Counted from the stretch's first letter, positions 30,254 through 36,852 are shown. The stretch is 58,978 nt of DNA from an uncultured Bacilli bacterium (GCA_947581765.1 CANPVU010000007.1:1-58978), one strand, 5' to 3'. The notes: generated by a model from the letters alone, not told the origin. Translations and numbers: made by a program.

Positions 30254-30278
30254 AAAAAATAGATTAATTATAATCTAT
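30254..30278 (-). terminator. Intrinsic terminator after the response regulator
   Basis: ATAGATTATAATTAATCTATTTTTTT on the minus strand. Confidence 0.7.
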
Positions 30279-30820
30279 TCTAATATACGGCTTATTTTTT
30301 CAAGAATTACTTTATCAGAAAAAGGTTTTTCTATCATATCATATACTTTATAAGTAAATGCTCTATCAATTGTCTCTTTAGTAGTATCACCACTTATTAT
30401 TATTACTGGTATATTATAATTTTTTTCTTTTAAATGTTCAAGAACACCAAAACCATCTACGCCTGGCATCATAAGATCTAGTAAGATTAAATCAATACTA
30501 TTTTCTCCATCTAATACTCTAATAGCATCTTCTCCTCCACCAGATAATATTACATCATACTCAGTTGATACTGTTTTTTGTAAATAATTTCTTATAATAC
30601 TAGAATCATCTACTATTAAAACTTTTTTCTTTGAAGATATTTCTACATTGTCACTAGTATTTTCAACTACTTGTGAATTTAAATCTTCTTTCATTGCTTC
30701 ATTAAATAGTGTATTTATATTTCCCTTTAATATTTTAAGTTGTAGTGCTACTTCTTCACTCGATGTATTTATACTATTATCAAATGTTGCATTTATTTTA
30801 TCTAACAATTCCCTCATCAT
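30275..30820 (-). CDS. Response regulator with a C-terminal receiver domain and no recognised output domain
   Basis: [43 protein letters not shown] at the C-terminus. Confidence 0.9.
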
Positions 30821-33048
30821 AAATCCTCCTTTATATATTGTTTAATGAGTTCCATAATACGATTTGCCTCAATCATTAATGATTCATAATTACTATTTAC
30901 ATAATCTACATCATTTTTTTTACTTGCCATTTCATGATTATAAGATAACTCAGCTAATTTAGTAAATCCTAAATATTTAGAATCACTTTTCATAGCATGT
31001 ACTAATATTGCATAATTAGGCATATCACTGTTATCTTTATATTCTTTTATTTTTTCTAATCGTTCTTTTGACTCTTTAAAGAAGTCTTTTATCGTATCAT
31101 TATAAGTATCCATATCTCCTAATAATTCTAAACTAGATGATATATCTACTCCTGCTTGTTTTAATATATCTAAATCATAATCTTCATCATCATTACTTTT
31201 TGTTTCTATATTTAGATTTGCTTTATCACCTTGTTTTAAATATTTTTTTAATATACTTTCAAGTTCTTCTTTATTTATTGGTTTTGATAAATAATCATTA
31301 AAACCATTTTCTAAATATTTTTCTCTCATACCTGATATAGCATTTGCAGTAAGTGCTACTGTAGGTGTAGAAAATCCTATAATCTTTTTTAAATTTTTAA
31401 GTGCTTCTACACCAGTCATATGTGGCATCATATCATCAAGTAAAATTAGTTCATAATTATTTCCTTGTAATACTTTATCAATACAACCTTTTCCAGAATC
31501 AGATGTATCTATATCTAAATTATAATCCCTTAATAATCTAATTGCAACCTTTAGGTTAATAGGATTATCATCTACAACTAAAATTTTATTATTATTTCCA
31601 ATAAATGGTATTGTATCAATTTTCTCATCTTGTATATCTTCTAATTTTTTAGGTACTATTCTTTGATCTAATGCTACTGTAAATTTAGATCCTTCACCAT
31701 ATTTACTTTGTACTACTATTTTTCCATTCATAAGTTCAATTAACTTTTTCGTAATAGCAAGTCCTAGTCCTGTACCTTCAATTGTAATATTTTTTTCAAG
31801 ATCAAGTCTTTCAAATTTATTAAATAATTTATTAATATTTTCTTCCTTAATTCCAATACCACTATCTTCAACAGAAACAATTAATCTACAAATATCGTTA
31901 TTTTTAACCGAACTAATAGTTAAATTAACATATCCTTGTTTTGTATATTTTACAGCATTAGTAAGTAAGTTTAATATGATTTGCTTAATTCGAACAAAAT
32001 CTCCATATAATACTGGTGGAATTGATTCATCATATTTATAATTAAATTCTAATGGTTTTTCACCTATTCTTGCTTTAGTAAGTGATACTAATTCATCAAA
32101 TACTTTTTTAAAGTTATACTCTGTATTTACTATTTCTAATTTATTTGCTTCAATTTTAGATATATCTAATATTCCATTTACAATTTGTAAAAGGCTTTGT
32201 GAAGCACTTATTATATCTTTTACTTCTTCTTTAGTTTCATTTGATAAGTCTTCTTCCAAAAGTCCTTGACTAAAACCTACTATTGCATTTAATGGAGTAC
32301 GTATTTCATGTGACATATTTGATAAAAATTCAGTTTTAGCATTATTAGCTTTTTCAGCCTGATTTTTTGCTTCACTTAATTCTTGTATCATTTTTAAATC
32401 AGGATTTTCTATAGTAAAGAACATCATGAATGTAACAAAAATAAAAAGTGATGTTATAAGTAGTAATTCTGGAAATAAATACTGAATAATACCTACAAAT
32501 ACACCTAATACTAATATAGCTATTATAGGTATATATTCTTTTTCACCTAATTTTTTTCTATTACAAATTAGGCAAATTATCCAAGATAAAATAAATAATC
32601 CAGCTAAAAGATAAGTAAATTTAGCCCCTATACCATACGTATAAATTCTATCATCATTATTTGATGTATAAAGTGGTAATAATAATATAATAAATATTGA
32701 AATAAATACTATTGGATATAACACTTTTTTTATTTTATTATAAATATCATACCCATCTGATTTTTTATTTCTAGATATAACTATAGTATATATTGTAAAG
32801 AAAAGCATCCATACAATCAAATAGATTAAGTAAAATTTCTGAAGAACTATAAGCATTGGGTTTGTTACATCTATTATTGCAAGATAAGTACTAGATAAAT
32901 CAAATATAATACCAAATATATTTATCAATATTAATCTAGAATAGATTTTATTTTCAATTGAATTTATCTTTTTCTTATTAAAGAAAATAATTAATAATAA
33001 AACAGTATATGCTAAACTAATCATTTGAAAATATAAACTGCTATACAT
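30817..33048 (-). CDS. Hybrid sensor histidine kinase (multi-TM sensor, HisKA, HATPase_c, REC, HPt)
   Basis: [50 protein letters not shown]...[15 protein letters not shown], HPt [13 protein letters not shown]. Confidence 0.96.
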
Positions 33049-33085
33049 ATAACCACCTACTTTACCATAACCATTATACCATGAT

Positions 33086-33111
33086 ATAAAAAAAAAGAAA
33101 ATTATAATTTT
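33086..33111 (-). terminator. Intrinsic terminator after the acyl-ligase gene
   Basis: GAAAATTATAATTTTC followed by nine T residues on the minus strand. Confidence 0.65.
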
Positions 33112-33117
33112 CCTTTT

Positions 33118-35475
33118 TTACATATGTATTTTCTTCTGATAACCACCATTATTTGACTCTTTATATAAAGTTGTAGCTAAGTCTTGTAGTTGTCTTCTAT
33201 TAACTTTATTTAAATTAGTAAGTGGTAATTTATTTTCTTCTGGTTGTATTATCTCATATATTTTCTGATATGTATCTACCTTTGAGTTAACATATTTTAT
33301 TATTTTATCTCTTAACTCAGCAGTTAACTCTGCATTATTTTTTAATGTAACGAATGCTACTGGAACATTCATTTTATATTCATGTGGCATTTTTACAACA
33401 GCACAATCTACTACTTCTGGAATTTCTTTTATAACAGCTTCTATTTCACTGCTATATACGTTAACTCCACTTACTATAATTATATTAGAATTTCTATCTT
33501 CAAAACATATTTCTCCATTTTCTGTCATGTAACATACATCACCAGTATTCAAATATGTTGTTCCAGATAACTTAACTAATGCCTTACTAGTTTCCTCTGA
33601 GTCATTATAATATCCATTCATTACTGTTGGACCACCTACATATAATACTCCAATTTCTCCAACAGGAACTTCCTTTAATGTATCTGGGTCTAATATTTTA
33701 ACGTCATTTAAAGGAAGTGGGAAACCAACACTTTTCTCATACATAGAATTTACACCAGTAAATGCAAGAGCTGCTGTTGCTTCTGTTGAACCTATTCCAG
33801 ACATTATTGGTGATGTAACATTATGTTCTGTTCTAAATTTATTTATTTCATCACGTAATTTTGGTTCTAATGTATCTCCACCAGAAATCCAAACTTTAGC
33901 AAATGATAAATCTGCTTTTTCTAATTTTTTTGAACTAACTACGCTTTTCCATAAAGTTGGAACACCTAATATTAATGTAGGTTTATTTTTTAACATAGAA
34001 GATATAAATATAGATTTATTATATTGTGGATGTAAATCTACTGACATATTTACTGCTAAAGCAGTAATAATACTATCTACTAATCCAAATCCATGGAATA
34101 TAGGTGAAATTGCAAGTAATTCATCACCCTTTTTATAAAATGGTATTGTATCTCTTAATTGAGCAGTATTTCTTATTACGTTTTCATTTGAAATACATGC
34201 AAGTTTAGATTTACCTGTTGTACCACCAGTTCTAAGCAATACTTTAGTCTCATATGGCACATATGGCTCATCACACTCTATACTACCATCATAATCACTA
34301 CCAAATGAAACTTCATCATTCCATTTAATAAATTTGTCTTCATATGAAACTTTAACTATTTTATTTTCTAATCTTTCAATTTCTTTTCTTATTGGTTCAA
34401 TAATAGATAAACATTTTTCTGGTATTAATTTAATAGCAGAATTTAATCGTTTAATAACCATCTTAGTTTTTATCTTTTTAAATTTTTCTTGTGCTATATA
34501 AAGCATCTTTATTCCTAGTGGATGACTTTTTATAGGTGGCATAGAATCTGCTGGTGAAACTACTACTACTTTCTCAACATTAGTACTATCAATAATTTTT
34601 GATACTTCACCATAACACATATCTGCCATAACTAAATATCTTGACTTAGTTTTATCAAGATTTTCAAGTATATCTTCACCTTTTAATAAAGGATGTAACA
34701 TACTAGCTGTAGCACCAATTTTATTTGTAGCTAAAAATGCAATAACAGCTTCTGGAGTATTAGGCATACAAATAGTTACAATATCATTCGATGTTATACC
34801 AGATTTTTTTAATGATTTAGCATATTCATCTACACGTTCAAATAATTCTCTAAAAGTAATTTTAGCTCCAAAATATCTAATAGCAAGTGAATCTAAATTA
34901 CTATAGTTATTTAAATATACATATTCCCAAATAGGCATACTAGGTAATTCAGTAAAATATTGTGCTGCATTATATGATGATTGCCAATTTTTATCTATTG
35001 AAGGTATACCAGATTTTACTGTAATAGGATCTTTTAAACTATTAATAATTTCTTCATTATATCTTAATATATCAGACAATATTTCATTACTATTAGTTGC
35101 TTCATAAAAATTACTAATTGATTTTTGTGACTTTGAATTAGTTATAAATCCAATTCTTGCTTTAGAATAATATCTTCTATTTTCATCATTAATACAATCT
35201 ATACTATTTTCTATAATATAACCAAAATTTTTAATATTTAATATTTTATTTTTATTTGATTGATTGTATAAAAATATATCTGTAACATCATTTTTATCTA
35301 ACGATAAACTTTCTAATATTTGTGCTTTAATTTCTTCATCTGATTCTTCTTTAAACTCAAAATTATTTTCATTAACCATTAAATAGATCTTAAATCCTTT
35401 TTTAGTTAATTCCTTTACTACTTCTTTAAAACTAGTATCCATGCTAAAAGCATTATAATTAATTGCTATATTCAT
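33118..35475 (-). CDS. AMP-dependent acyl-CoA/ACP synthetase with an extra N-terminal domain
   Basis: RTGGTTGKSKLACISNENV, GSTEATAAL, YLNTGDVC, IIIVSGVNVYSSEIE; start moved to 35475 by the GGGGG RBS; ~150 aa precede the ligase core. Confidence 0.93.
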   Translation of the reverse strand: MNIAINYNAFSMDTSFKEVVKELTKKGFKIYLMVNENNFEFKEESDEEIKAQILESLSLDKNDVTDIFLYNQSNKNKILNIKNFGYIIENSIDCINDENRRYYSKARIGFITNSKSQKSISNFYEATNSNEILSDILRYNEEIINSLKDPITVKSGIPSIDKNWQSSYNAAQYFTELPSMPIWEYVYLNNYSNLDSLAIRYFGAKITFRELFERVDEYAKSLKKSGITSNDIVTICMPNTPEAVIAFLATNKIGATASMLHPLLKGEDILENLDKTKSRYLVMADMCYGEVSKIIDSTNVEKVVVVSPADSMPPIKSHPLGIKMLYIAQEKFKKIKTKMVIKRLNSAIKLIPEKCLSIIEPIRKEIERLENKIVKVSYEDKFIKWNDEVSFGSDYDGSIECDEPYVPYETKVLLRTGGTTGKSKLACISNENVIRNTAQLRDTIPFYKKGDELLAISPIFHGFGLVDSIITALAVNMSVDLHPQYNKSIFISSMLKNKPTLILGVPTLWKSVVSSKKLEKADLSFAKVWISGGDTLEPKLRDEINKFRTEHNVTSPIMSGIGSTEATAALAFTGVNSMYEKSVGFPLPLNDVKILDPDTLKEVPVGEIGVLYVGGPTVMNGYYNDSEETSKALVKLSGTTYLNTGDVCYMTENGEICFEDRNSNIIIVSGVNVYSSEIEAVIKEIPEVVDCAVVKMPHEYKMNVPVAFVTLKNNAELTAELRDKIIKYVNSKVDTYQKIYEIIQPEENKLPLTNLNKVNRRQLQDLATTLYKESNNGGYQKKIHM

Positions 35476-35490
35476 ATAACACATCCCCCT

Positions 35491-36852
35491 TTATTTATAT
35501 TTTTTACTTTTTACTTTATCTTCTTTCATACTTTTACGTGTCATAGACTCAATTGTCTTAGCTAAATTTTCATTTGCTTGAGCTAAATCATCGTCTTTTT
35601 TTACAAATTGTACTTCTCCAACTTTTAAATAAGTATGTTTTCCATGATATAAAGACATAGGTAATATTGCAGCACCTGTTTTTTGTGCTAAAGATACTGT
35701 TCCTAACTTAAATGGTAACTGTATTTTTTTCTTACCCTCTTCATCTTTATTTTTTCTAGTTCCTTCTGGAAAAATAAGAGCTATTTTATCATGTACAATT
35801 CTTTTAGCAAGTTCTTCTTCACCGTTTTTTTTGCTTTCAGCATTTTGTCTATCAATAAATACTGCACCTTGAGTAAAATCAAACATTCTACCTCTTATTG
35901 TATGTCTGATAGTAGAAGCTGCAAATCCACAAAACTGACGAGCACCTAATGCTTGACTTATATAGAATTGATCAAAACTATTTAAATGATTACATGCAAT
36001 TATAAATCCATCTTGATATGGAATATTTTCTTGTCCTTTTTTCTTTGAATGAAAGGCAATGAAGAAAGGTATAAATGTAGCATAATATAAAAGTTTAAAT
36101 CTTTTTTTACTTTTCTTAAATGCTTCTTCATTTACTTGTAGATTTTTTATATATGATTTATAACTTGTAAAATATTCTACTTGTTGCTCCTTTGTTAAAC
36201 ATTCTCTTTCTTCTAATTCAAGATAATGAAAAGGTGCTACTGCCTTTTTGTTATTCTTTAACATTTGAATATATTCATAACATTCTTTCCAACTTTCTAC
36301 AGGAATAATATTTTCATGTGATACCTCCGTATTATATGGCGCTCTAAATAATAAGACCTTTACTCCTTGTTCTGCTAAATAAAGAGCCACTTCTGGTTTA
36401 TCTTCAATCATTACATCAACATCTAATTTTAAACATGCCATATATTTATCACGTGGGCTAAAATCTTCTGAACAATATTGAATGCTATCAAAATCTAATC
36501 CATTATTCTTTAAATAATCTTGAAATAACCTACGATAATGTAATCCTAATACACCCTTATCTGTTGTAAACATACGTGCTGTTATTTCATGTAATTGTAC
36601 GCCTTCACTTTTTAAAGCTTTTAATACCTCTTTAGCACCATCACGAAGTGGTGTCTTTTTACAATACTTATCTAATACTTTAAGACCAAATAATATTTTT
36701 TGAAATTTATTTATTCCAAACATTTCCTCAGGTGAATAAGCATCTGGCTTAACTGGTTCCCTCTTAAAAAATTTACGTCCTTCTTCAATATTAAACTTTG
36801 TCATGTCTGTTAATACACCGTCTGCATCTACACCTACTACAAACTTATTCAT
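35491..36852 (-). CDS. Fusion: N-terminal HAD-like domain plus C-terminal PlsC-type acyltransferase
   Basis: HAD motif VGVDADGVLTDMT and IEDKPE; PlsC motifs NHLNSFD (HX4D) and FPEGTRKN. Confidence 0.9.
   Translation of the reverse strand: MNKFVVGVDADGVLTDMTKFNIEEGRKFFKREPVKPDAYSPEEMFGINKFQKILFGLKVLDKYCKKTPLRDGAKEVLKALKSEGVQLHEITARMFTTDKGVLGLHYRRLFQDYLKNNGLDFDSIQYCSEDFSPRDKYMACLKLDVDVMIEDKPEVALYLAEQGVKVLLFRAPYNTEVSHENIIPVESWKECYEYIQMLKNNKKAVAPFHYLELEERECLTKEQQVEYFTSYKSYIKNLQVNEEAFKKSKKRFKLLYYATFIPFFIAFHSKKKGQENIPYQDGFIIACNHLNSFDQFYISQALGARQFCGFAASTIRHTIRGRMFDFTQGAVFIDRQNAESKKNGEEELAKRIVHDKIALIFPEGTRKNKDEEGKKKIQLPFKLGTVSLAQKTGAAILPMSLYHGKHTYLKVGEVQFVKKDDDLAQANENLAKTIESMTRKSMKEDKVKSKKYK

What the first reader, a model, noticed from the sequence alone, without database searches (positions are those of the whole stretch)
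33118..36852. HAD-PlsC fusion followed by an acyl-ligase with its own N-terminal, possibly degenerate HAD-like domain
The upstream protein joins a HAD-like domain (VGVDADGVLTDMT) to a PlsC acyltransferase (NHLNSFD, FPEGTR). The next gene, 15 bp away by CDS coordinates after start correction, is an AMP-dependent acyl-ligase with ~150 extra N-terminal residues (MNIAINYNAFSMDTSFKEVVKELTKKGFKIYLMVN...) that look HAD-like but lack the catalytic Asp pair. E. coli Aas fuses PlsC to an acyl-ACP ligase; here the two activities are split and each carries a HAD-type module. This could be a phospholipid remodelling or acyl-recycling pathway using a paired active/pseudo-HAD.
Basis: partly seen in the sequence, partly recalled or inferred. 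Interest (0 to 1): 0.75.

Follow-up and report, generated by a model that had tools for sequence, protein, structure and literature searches.

The report
Shuffled lipid cassette with pseudo-phosphatase ligase
In a small-genome bacterium that appears unable to make its own fatty acids, three lipid-handling activities (fatty-acid activation, acyl transfer, phosphate removal) sit next to a membrane sensor, and among its relatives the phosphatase is fused now to one partner, now to the other, here leaving a dead copy of itself on the ligase.

Summary
On the minus strand, 36852..35491 encodes an NT5C-type HAD phosphatase (catalytic residues intact) fused to PlsC. After 15 bp, 35475..33118 encodes an AMP-forming acyl-ligase whose N-terminal extension is a cap-less, catalytically dead HAD: a profile of it, built without the linker, finds HADs at E down to 1e-11, and no shuffled or unrelated ORF. 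AlphaFold/Foldseek were inconclusive.

The finding is wider than reported. Same-genus genomes carry an active HAD fused directly to the ligase, with a separate PlsC; one genome has HAD–ligase–PlsC in one 1189-aa ORF; others have plain ligase + HAD-PlsC. Pseudo-HAD ligases fall in three places on the ligase tree. A membrane hybrid histidine kinase follows the cassette in 24 of 25 loci; conversely 43 of 54 such kinases lie within 2.5 kb of a ligase or PlsC gene (about 1.4% expected). The genome shows no FASII ketosynthase or PlsX.

Best reading: fatty acid is activated by the ligase, transferred by PlsC to a phosphorylated acceptor, and dephosphorylated by HAD to a neutral lipid, coupled to the sensor. 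Substrates are inferred. The pseudo-HAD looks relaxed in the window lineage but constrained in another.

The parts
35491..36852 (-). HAD(NT5C-type)-PlsC fusion protein, 453 aa
   Evidence: Pfam PF06941 and PF01553 above cut-off; AAAGGGGG ribosome-binding site before the ATG
36238..36852 (-). active HAD phosphatase domain (residues 1-205; D9, D11, T91, R93, K136, D151 intact)
   Evidence: alignment A1 and catalytic-residue table
35491..36075 (-). PlsC acyltransferase domain (about residues 260-453; NHLNSFD = NHX4D, FPEGTR)
   Evidence: PF01553 71.7 bits; phmmer hit to PlsC structure 5kym; motif residues invariant or nearly so in A4
35476..35490 (-). 15-bp gap holding AGGGGG, the likely ribosome-binding site of the ligase gene
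   Evidence: sequence
33118..35475 (-). AMP-forming acyl-ligase with N-terminal pseudo-HAD, 785 aa
   Evidence: PF00501 207.6 bits, PF13193 48.4 bits
35122..35475 (-). pseudo-HAD domain (about residues 1-118): cap deleted, motif I DxD replaced by NxN, motif II T to V, motif IV D to N
   Evidence: profile-profile and HMM tests, residue table; fold models low confidence
33118..34893 (-). acyl-ligase domain (residues 195-785; TGGTTGKSK, NTGD and C-terminal Lys region present)
30817..33048 (-). hybrid histidine kinase: about 220-aa hydrophobic sensor (7TM by eye), HisKA, HATPase, REC, weak Hpt; next gene after the cassette
   Evidence: Pfam; adjacency in relatives
30275..30820 (-). 181-aa protein with C-terminal response-regulator receiver, overlaps the end of the kinase gene by 4 bp
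   Evidence: PF00072 82.5 bits; an equivalent Hpt+REC gene follows the kinase in L102

Best explanation
The two genes are the enzymatic core of a conserved lipid cassette: acyl-ligase, PlsC acyltransferase, HAD phosphatase, followed by a membrane hybrid histidine kinase. Proposed working: the ligase activates a scavenged fatty acid (ATP to AMP + PPi) to an acyl thioester; PlsC transfers the acyl group to a phosphorylated acceptor (lysophosphatidate or glycerol phosphate most likely); the attached HAD removes the phosphate, giving a neutral lipid (di- or monoacylglycerol type); the adjacent kinase senses the product or the lipid state it reflects. In this genus the phosphatase was probably once fused to the ligase, as it still is in sister species. 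In the window's branch the cassette has an active HAD on PlsC, and the ligase's own HAD has lost its cap and catalytic residues. Shown here: domain identities, intact versus lost catalytic residues, homology of the extension to HAD, alternative fusions, conserved neighbourhood, absence of FASII/PlsX hits. Inferred: all substrates and products, the kinase ligand, and the direction of domain transfer.
For: Domains. Extension is HAD-derived: hhalign P 3.7e-6; HMM of 5 extensions without linker hits 40+ HADs (best E 1.1e-11), 0 of 1160 shuffles and 0 of 280 other ORFs among hits to E 0.012; over 386 family genomes its hits beyond the ligase extensions are almost all HAD-sized ORFs (compare). Residue table. 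Alternative fusions: HAD-ligase + PlsC in 7 genomes, HAD-ligase-PlsC in 1, pseudo-HAD-ligase + HAD-PlsC in 5, plain ligase + HAD-PlsC in 6, HAD-PlsC with no adjacent ligase in 6. Unfused HAD next to PlsC in G124, and a PlsC-ligase-PlsC-HAD operon in G157. HAD stays with PlsC when no ligase is adjacent, favouring a PlsC-linked substrate. Ligase tree: window+G010 sister to the same-genus HAD-ligases (99/98); pseudo-HAD ligases not one clade (p-AU 0.0002). No PlsX or ketoacyl-synthase hit. Kinase adjacency 24 of 25 loci and the reciprocal 43 of 54. Precedents for acyltransferase plus phosphatase giving dephosphorylated lipid: plant GPAT4 (PMC4112632), GlcABC glucoselipid operon (PMC12299268).
Against: No activity is shown. 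NT5C relatives are nucleotidases and a close HAD relative here is fused to nucleoside hydrolase, which suggests a nucleotide substrate. Fold models are weak (pLDDT 56-59). The module loci were found with HAD or ligase queries from this cassette, so 'always an active HAD' is partly selection. Kinase adjacency is not phylogenetically independent, and a low-GC hairpin with a T-run between ligase and kinase (by eye) may separate their transcription. The genome is 87% complete, so absences are provisional.
Confidence: 0.6

Rival explanations
1. The HAD is a 5'-nucleotidase that removes the AMP released by the ligase and so pulls fatty-acid activation forward; its fusion to PlsC only keeps it in the complex.
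For: HAD belongs to NT5C; a related HAD is fused to a nucleoside hydrolase; HAD is fused directly to the AMP-forming ligase in 8 genomes.
Against: HAD stays with PlsC in loci without an adjacent ligase (G027, G160, G180, G342, G197, G130) and lies next to unfused PlsC in G124.
Confidence: 0.15
2. The acceptor is a phosphorylated sugar or polyol rather than glycerol phosphate, and the product is a glycolipid, as in the GlcABC operon of Rouxiella badensis.
For: GlcB (PlsC-like) plus GlcC (HAD) with GlcA make glucose dilipid (PMC12299268); PlsC relatives accept varied acceptors (same paper).
Against: GlcC is a SerB-type HAD, not NT5C, and no GlcA-like acetyltransferase was seen as part of the cassette.
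Confidence: 0.15
3. Aas-like lysophospholipid recycling: the ligase and PlsC re-acylate lysophospholipid, and the HAD domains are structural or regulatory.
For: Same two activities as Aas (PMC4666226); ligase scores to the acyl-ACP:phospholipid O-acyltransferase model NF006386 (155 bits).
Against: 155 bits against a cut-off of 1221; every HAD checked other than the ligase extensions keeps its catalytic set, which a purely structural domain would not need.
Confidence: 0.15
4. The ligase extension is not a HAD but another Rossmann-like domain.
For: No Pfam HAD match; Foldseek returns mixed Rossmann-like folds.
Against: Profile evidence with decoys; co-linear alignment with HAD-ligases of the same genus through the shared linker.
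Confidence: 0.04

Closest known systems
E. [quoted passage not shown]
   Same: PlsC-type acyltransferase and AMP-forming acyl-ligase working as a pair
   Different: Aas is one polypeptide with no HAD (own knowledge and PMC4666226); here the genes are split and a HAD phosphatase is part of the set; score far below the curated cut-off of NF006386
Plant GPAT4/6/8 (sn-2 glycerol-3-phosphate acyltransferase with phosphatase activity; GPAT5/7 without phosphatase activity) (PMC4112632)
   Same: acyl transfer and phosphatase activity in one protein, giving monoacylglycerol; phosphatase activity absent in some members
   Different: plant; no ligase partner or sensor kinase; relationship of the two phosphatase domains not tested here
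Rouxiella badensis GlcABC glucoselipid operon (PMC12299268)
   Same: PlsC-like acyltransferase plus HAD phosphatase make a dephosphorylated acylated lipid
   Different: SerB-type HAD, GNAT-type first acyltransferase, no AMP-ligase, unfused
Xanthomonas Rpf/DSF system (RpfB acyl-CoA ligase, RpfC sensor kinase) (papers listed)
   Same: a fatty acyl-CoA ligase and a membrane sensor kinase belonging to one signalling system
   Different: no PlsC or HAD (own knowledge); RpfF not looked for here; kinase sensor domain relationship not tested

Membership tests
HAD superfamily, NT5C family (HAD domain of HAD-PlsC) | sequence match above curated cut-off | tested here: met
   27.9 bits vs 24.8; HAD of a same-genus HAD-ligase 49 bits
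HAD superfamily, NT5C family (HAD domain of HAD-PlsC) | motifs I DxD, II T/S, III K, IV D | tested here: met
   D9, D11, T91, K136, D151
HAD superfamily, NT5C family (HAD domain of HAD-PlsC) | 5'-nucleotidase activity | not testable with these tools
   needs enzyme assay
HAD superfamily (ligase N-terminal extension) | homology to HAD domains | tested here: met
HAD superfamily (ligase N-terminal extension) | catalytic residues | tested here: not met
   N/N/V/K/N at D9/D11/T91/K136/D151; cap region absent: a pseudo-enzyme at most
HAD superfamily (ligase N-terminal extension) | HAD Rossmannoid fold | tested here: inconclusive
   residues 1-70 predicted beta-alpha-beta-alpha-beta (block pLDDT 67-86), rest poor; Foldseek not significant for HAD
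Aas | PlsC and ligase in one polypeptide | tested here: not met
   two ORFs; a triple HAD-ligase-PlsC ORF exists in G349
Aas | curated score to acyl-ACP:phospholipid O-acyltransferase model | tested here: not met
   155 vs 1221 bits
Aas | acyl-ACP synthetase and lysophospholipid acyltransferase activity | not testable with these tools
   needs assay
PlsC / LPLAT acyltransferase | PF01553 above cut-off with NHX4D and FPEGTR motifs | tested here: met
   71.7 bits; NHLNSFD, FPEGTR
AMP-forming acyl-ligase (ANL superfamily) | AMP-binding and C-terminal domains above cut-off | tested here: met
   207.6 and 48.4 bits
GPAT4/6/8-type bifunctional acyltransferase-phosphatase | phosphatase and acyltransferase domains in one protein | tested here: met
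   HAD-PlsC ORF
GPAT4/6/8-type bifunctional acyltransferase-phosphatase | sn-2 acylation of G3P and release of MAG | not testable with these tools
   needs assay
Rpf/DSF-type signalling system | RpfF synthase present | not tested
   no search made

The most novel reading that the evidence does not exclude
The cassette is a self-contained lipid-signal system: ligase, PlsC and HAD make a neutral acylated signal from scavenged fatty acid and the dedicated membrane hybrid kinase reads it. The active phosphatase has been swapped repeatedly between the two enzymes, with pseudo-HAD remnants on the ligase that in some lineages are kept as a docking domain for the active HAD on PlsC.
Probability: 0.2. 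Interest if true: 0.82.

Novelty: new variant of a known kind. Interest (0 to 1): 0.62.

Why it matters
Fusions in alternative order are among the best genomic evidence that proteins act in one pathway; here HAD, ligase and PlsC occur in many arrangements, including one triple ORF, so a three-step reaction becomes directly testable in one protein. The lineage seems unable to make fatty acids, so this may be one way it builds lipid from scavenged fatty acids, possibly under control of a dedicated family of sensor kinases with unknown ligand. It also gives a case of a catalytic domain degenerating on one partner in cassettes where an active copy sits on the other.

Tried and rejected
AlphaFold of the extension, single sequence, residues 1-176 and 1-125: low confidence, Foldseek inconclusive. 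Relatives from the genome search were not handed to the structure tool because its stated rule names other sources. A two-row alignment of pseudo-HAD with the window HAD was misaligned and not used. The genome-contig scan with the HAD-PlsC protein found one distant PlsC only. A class-wide sampled search found HAD-PlsC fusions only within the same family; outside it only the PlsC half matched. The 372-aa gene between HAD-PlsC and kinase in L103/L105 looked SGNH-like by eye but has no Pfam or PDB match, and the 325-aa gene beside the kinase in G005/G008 resembled a zinc phospholipase C by eye but has no Pfam match; neither idea is used. Long-branch ligases were left out in the second tree because the first warned of long-branch joins.

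Full report
Observation. Both ORFs are real, intact and on the minus strand. The upstream gene (36852..35491) encodes 453 aa: an NT5C-type HAD (PF06941, above cut-off) followed by PlsC (PF01553). It encodes 785 aa; the AMP-binding domain begins near residue 195, preceded by a linker that sister-species HAD-ligases share ('DPIT..KSG..SID'), so the true extension is about 118 residues plus linker.

Is the extension a HAD? No library model matches it. Four lines of evidence say yes. First, same-genus genomes G003, G004, G006, G007, G011 encode an 820-832 aa ligase whose N-terminus is an intact HAD (MNIAFDIDGV...), co-linear with the window's MNIAINYNAF... through the motif II, III and IV regions into the shared linker (NT5C 49 bits in L006). 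Second, profile-profile comparison of active HADs with four extensions gives P = 3.7e-6 over motifs II-IV. Third, an HMM of five extensions without the linker hits stand-alone HADs at E = 1.1e-11 downward, and none of the hits down to E = 0.012 is among 1160 shuffled HADs or 280 unrelated ORFs. Fourth, over 386 family genomes the extension profile's hits beyond the ligase extensions themselves fall almost entirely on HAD-sized ORFs; by my count 29 of 41 are places the HAD profile also hit. The fold models are consistent in strand order (beta-alpha-beta-alpha-beta over the first 70 residues, block pLDDT 67-86) but too weak to decide.

Dead or alive. The HAD catalytic set D, D, T/S, K, D is complete in practically all HADs collected (one, L039, has motif I outside the aligned stretch). 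The five ligase extensions read N-N-V-K-N (window), N-D-S-K-N (G010), R-S-I-I-S (G014), K-C-F-L-R (G021) and N-E-F-K-N (G313), and all lack the roughly 50-residue cap. The nucleophile is gone in every one.

Arrangements. In 25 loci the parts are: HAD-ligase then PlsC (7: G003, G004, G006, G007, G011, G302, G060); HAD-ligase-PlsC in one 1189-aa ORF (1: G349); pseudo-HAD-ligase with HAD-PlsC (5: window, G010, G014, G021 with reversed gene order, G313 also reversed); plain ligase with HAD-PlsC (6: G026, G321, G151, G184, G371, G206); HAD-PlsC with no adjacent ligase (6: G027, G160, G180, G342, G197, G130; some of these contigs end close by). G124 has HAD and PlsC as separate neighbouring genes and G157 a PlsC-ligase-PlsC-HAD operon. 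No locus had two intact HADs; because loci were found with queries from this cassette, 'never zero' cannot be claimed. In a class-wide sample the HAD-PlsC fusion was not seen outside this family.

History. In the ligase tree the window and G010 are sister to the five same-genus HAD-ligases (99/98); G014+G021 and G313 branch elsewhere; holding all pseudo-HAD ligases together is rejected (p-AU 0.0002), as is holding all HAD-ligases together (the test presumes groups named in advance, and G349 is a long branch). The window's HAD-PlsC groups with HAD-PlsC of other genera. The simplest reading, inferred, is that an HAD-PlsC gene joined a cassette whose ligase already carried a HAD, after which the ligase's copy decayed; plain ligases may be the end point, since G313 is sister to them (96/88). 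Constraint differs: dN/dS of the pseudo-HAD is 0.22 between G021 and G188 but about 1.15 between the window and G010, against 0.36 for the latter pair's ligase domains (that pair is at 36% identity in this region, so the figure is rough). The window's own pseudo-HAD may therefore be a decaying remnant, while another lineage keeps one.

Sensor. The next gene is a hybrid histidine kinase (HisKA, HATPase, REC, weak Hpt) with a ~220-aa hydrophobic N-terminus of no Pfam family, then a receiver protein. In 24 of the 25 loci this kinase type follows, in two of them with one gene between. Conversely, of 54 hits to its sensor in 57 relatives, 43 lie within 2.5 kb of a ligase or PlsC hit, which together cover about 1.4% of those genomes; five more have a weakly PlsC-like gene alongside. 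The window's genome has a second ligase-kinase pair on C5 and a ligase with a kinase fragment on C22. Shared ancestry inflates such counts, but the link survives changes of gene order, fusion and partner. A low-GC hairpin with T-run and a TATAAT between ligase and kinase (by eye) may mean separate transcription.

Physiology. The own genome has no hit to PlsX or to ketoacyl synthase, while the control genomes ring; it is 87% complete. It does have a PlsC-ligase-PlsC operon on C10, which probably does bulk acylation (inference). The window cassette would then be a specialised one with a phosphatase step.

Mechanism. Most likely the ligase makes an acyl thioester from scavenged fatty acid, PlsC acylates a phosphorylated acceptor, and the HAD removes the phosphate. 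The HAD's loyalty to PlsC where no ligase is adjacent favours a PlsC product over AMP. Precedents are plant GPAT4 and relatives, which acylate and dephosphorylate to monoacylglycerol and of which GPAT5/7 lack phosphatase activity (PMC4112632), and GlcABC, where a PlsC-like enzyme and a HAD with a third acyltransferase make glucose lipids (PMC12299268). The nucleotidase alternative stays open because NT5C enzymes act on nucleotides (family knowledge) and a close relative here is fused to nucleoside hydrolase.

Novelty. Individual parts are known kinds. A HAD-acyl-ligase fusion, the triple fusion, the repeated pseudo-HAD state and the dedicated kinase were not found in the papers searched, a limited library. 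I class it as a new variant of a known kind.

Noticed in passing
window 30817..33048 (-) and relatives (L150-L156, L162-L169): The membrane sensor domain of this hybrid kinase marks a family that mostly sits beside acyl-ligase or PlsC genes (43 of 54 hits), suggesting a dedicated lipid sensor of unknown ligand.
   Followed up: partly
L095:4021-7590 (G349:C57): Single 1189-aa ORF joining HAD, acyl-ligase and PlsC.
   Followed up: partly
L109:4969-6405; L110-L112 have similar 478-513 aa ORFs whose HADs also match: In L109 a related NT5C-type HAD is fused to an inosine-uridine nucleoside hydrolase (PF01156); the C-terminal parts of L110-L112 were not scanned.
   Followed up: partly
L103:1522-2640 and L105:2917-4035: Conserved 372-aa gene of no known family between HAD-PlsC and the kinase.
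   Followed up: partly
L157:4899-5876 and L158:2863-3840 (G005, G008): Conserved 325-aa gene of no Pfam family directly upstream of the same kinase type in genomes of the same genus where no HAD cassette was seen.
   Followed up: partly
G000:C10:3381-6268 (L129): PlsC-ligase-PlsC operon in the window's genome; G157 (L161) has the same operon with a stand-alone HAD added.
   Followed up: partly
whole own genome G000: No match to PlsX (PF02504) or ketoacyl synthase (PF00109), suggesting no de novo fatty acid synthesis (genome 87% complete).
   Followed up: partly
window 33049..33117 (-): AT-rich hairpin with T-run followed by TATAAT between the ligase stop and the kinase start; may separate their transcription.
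   Followed up: no
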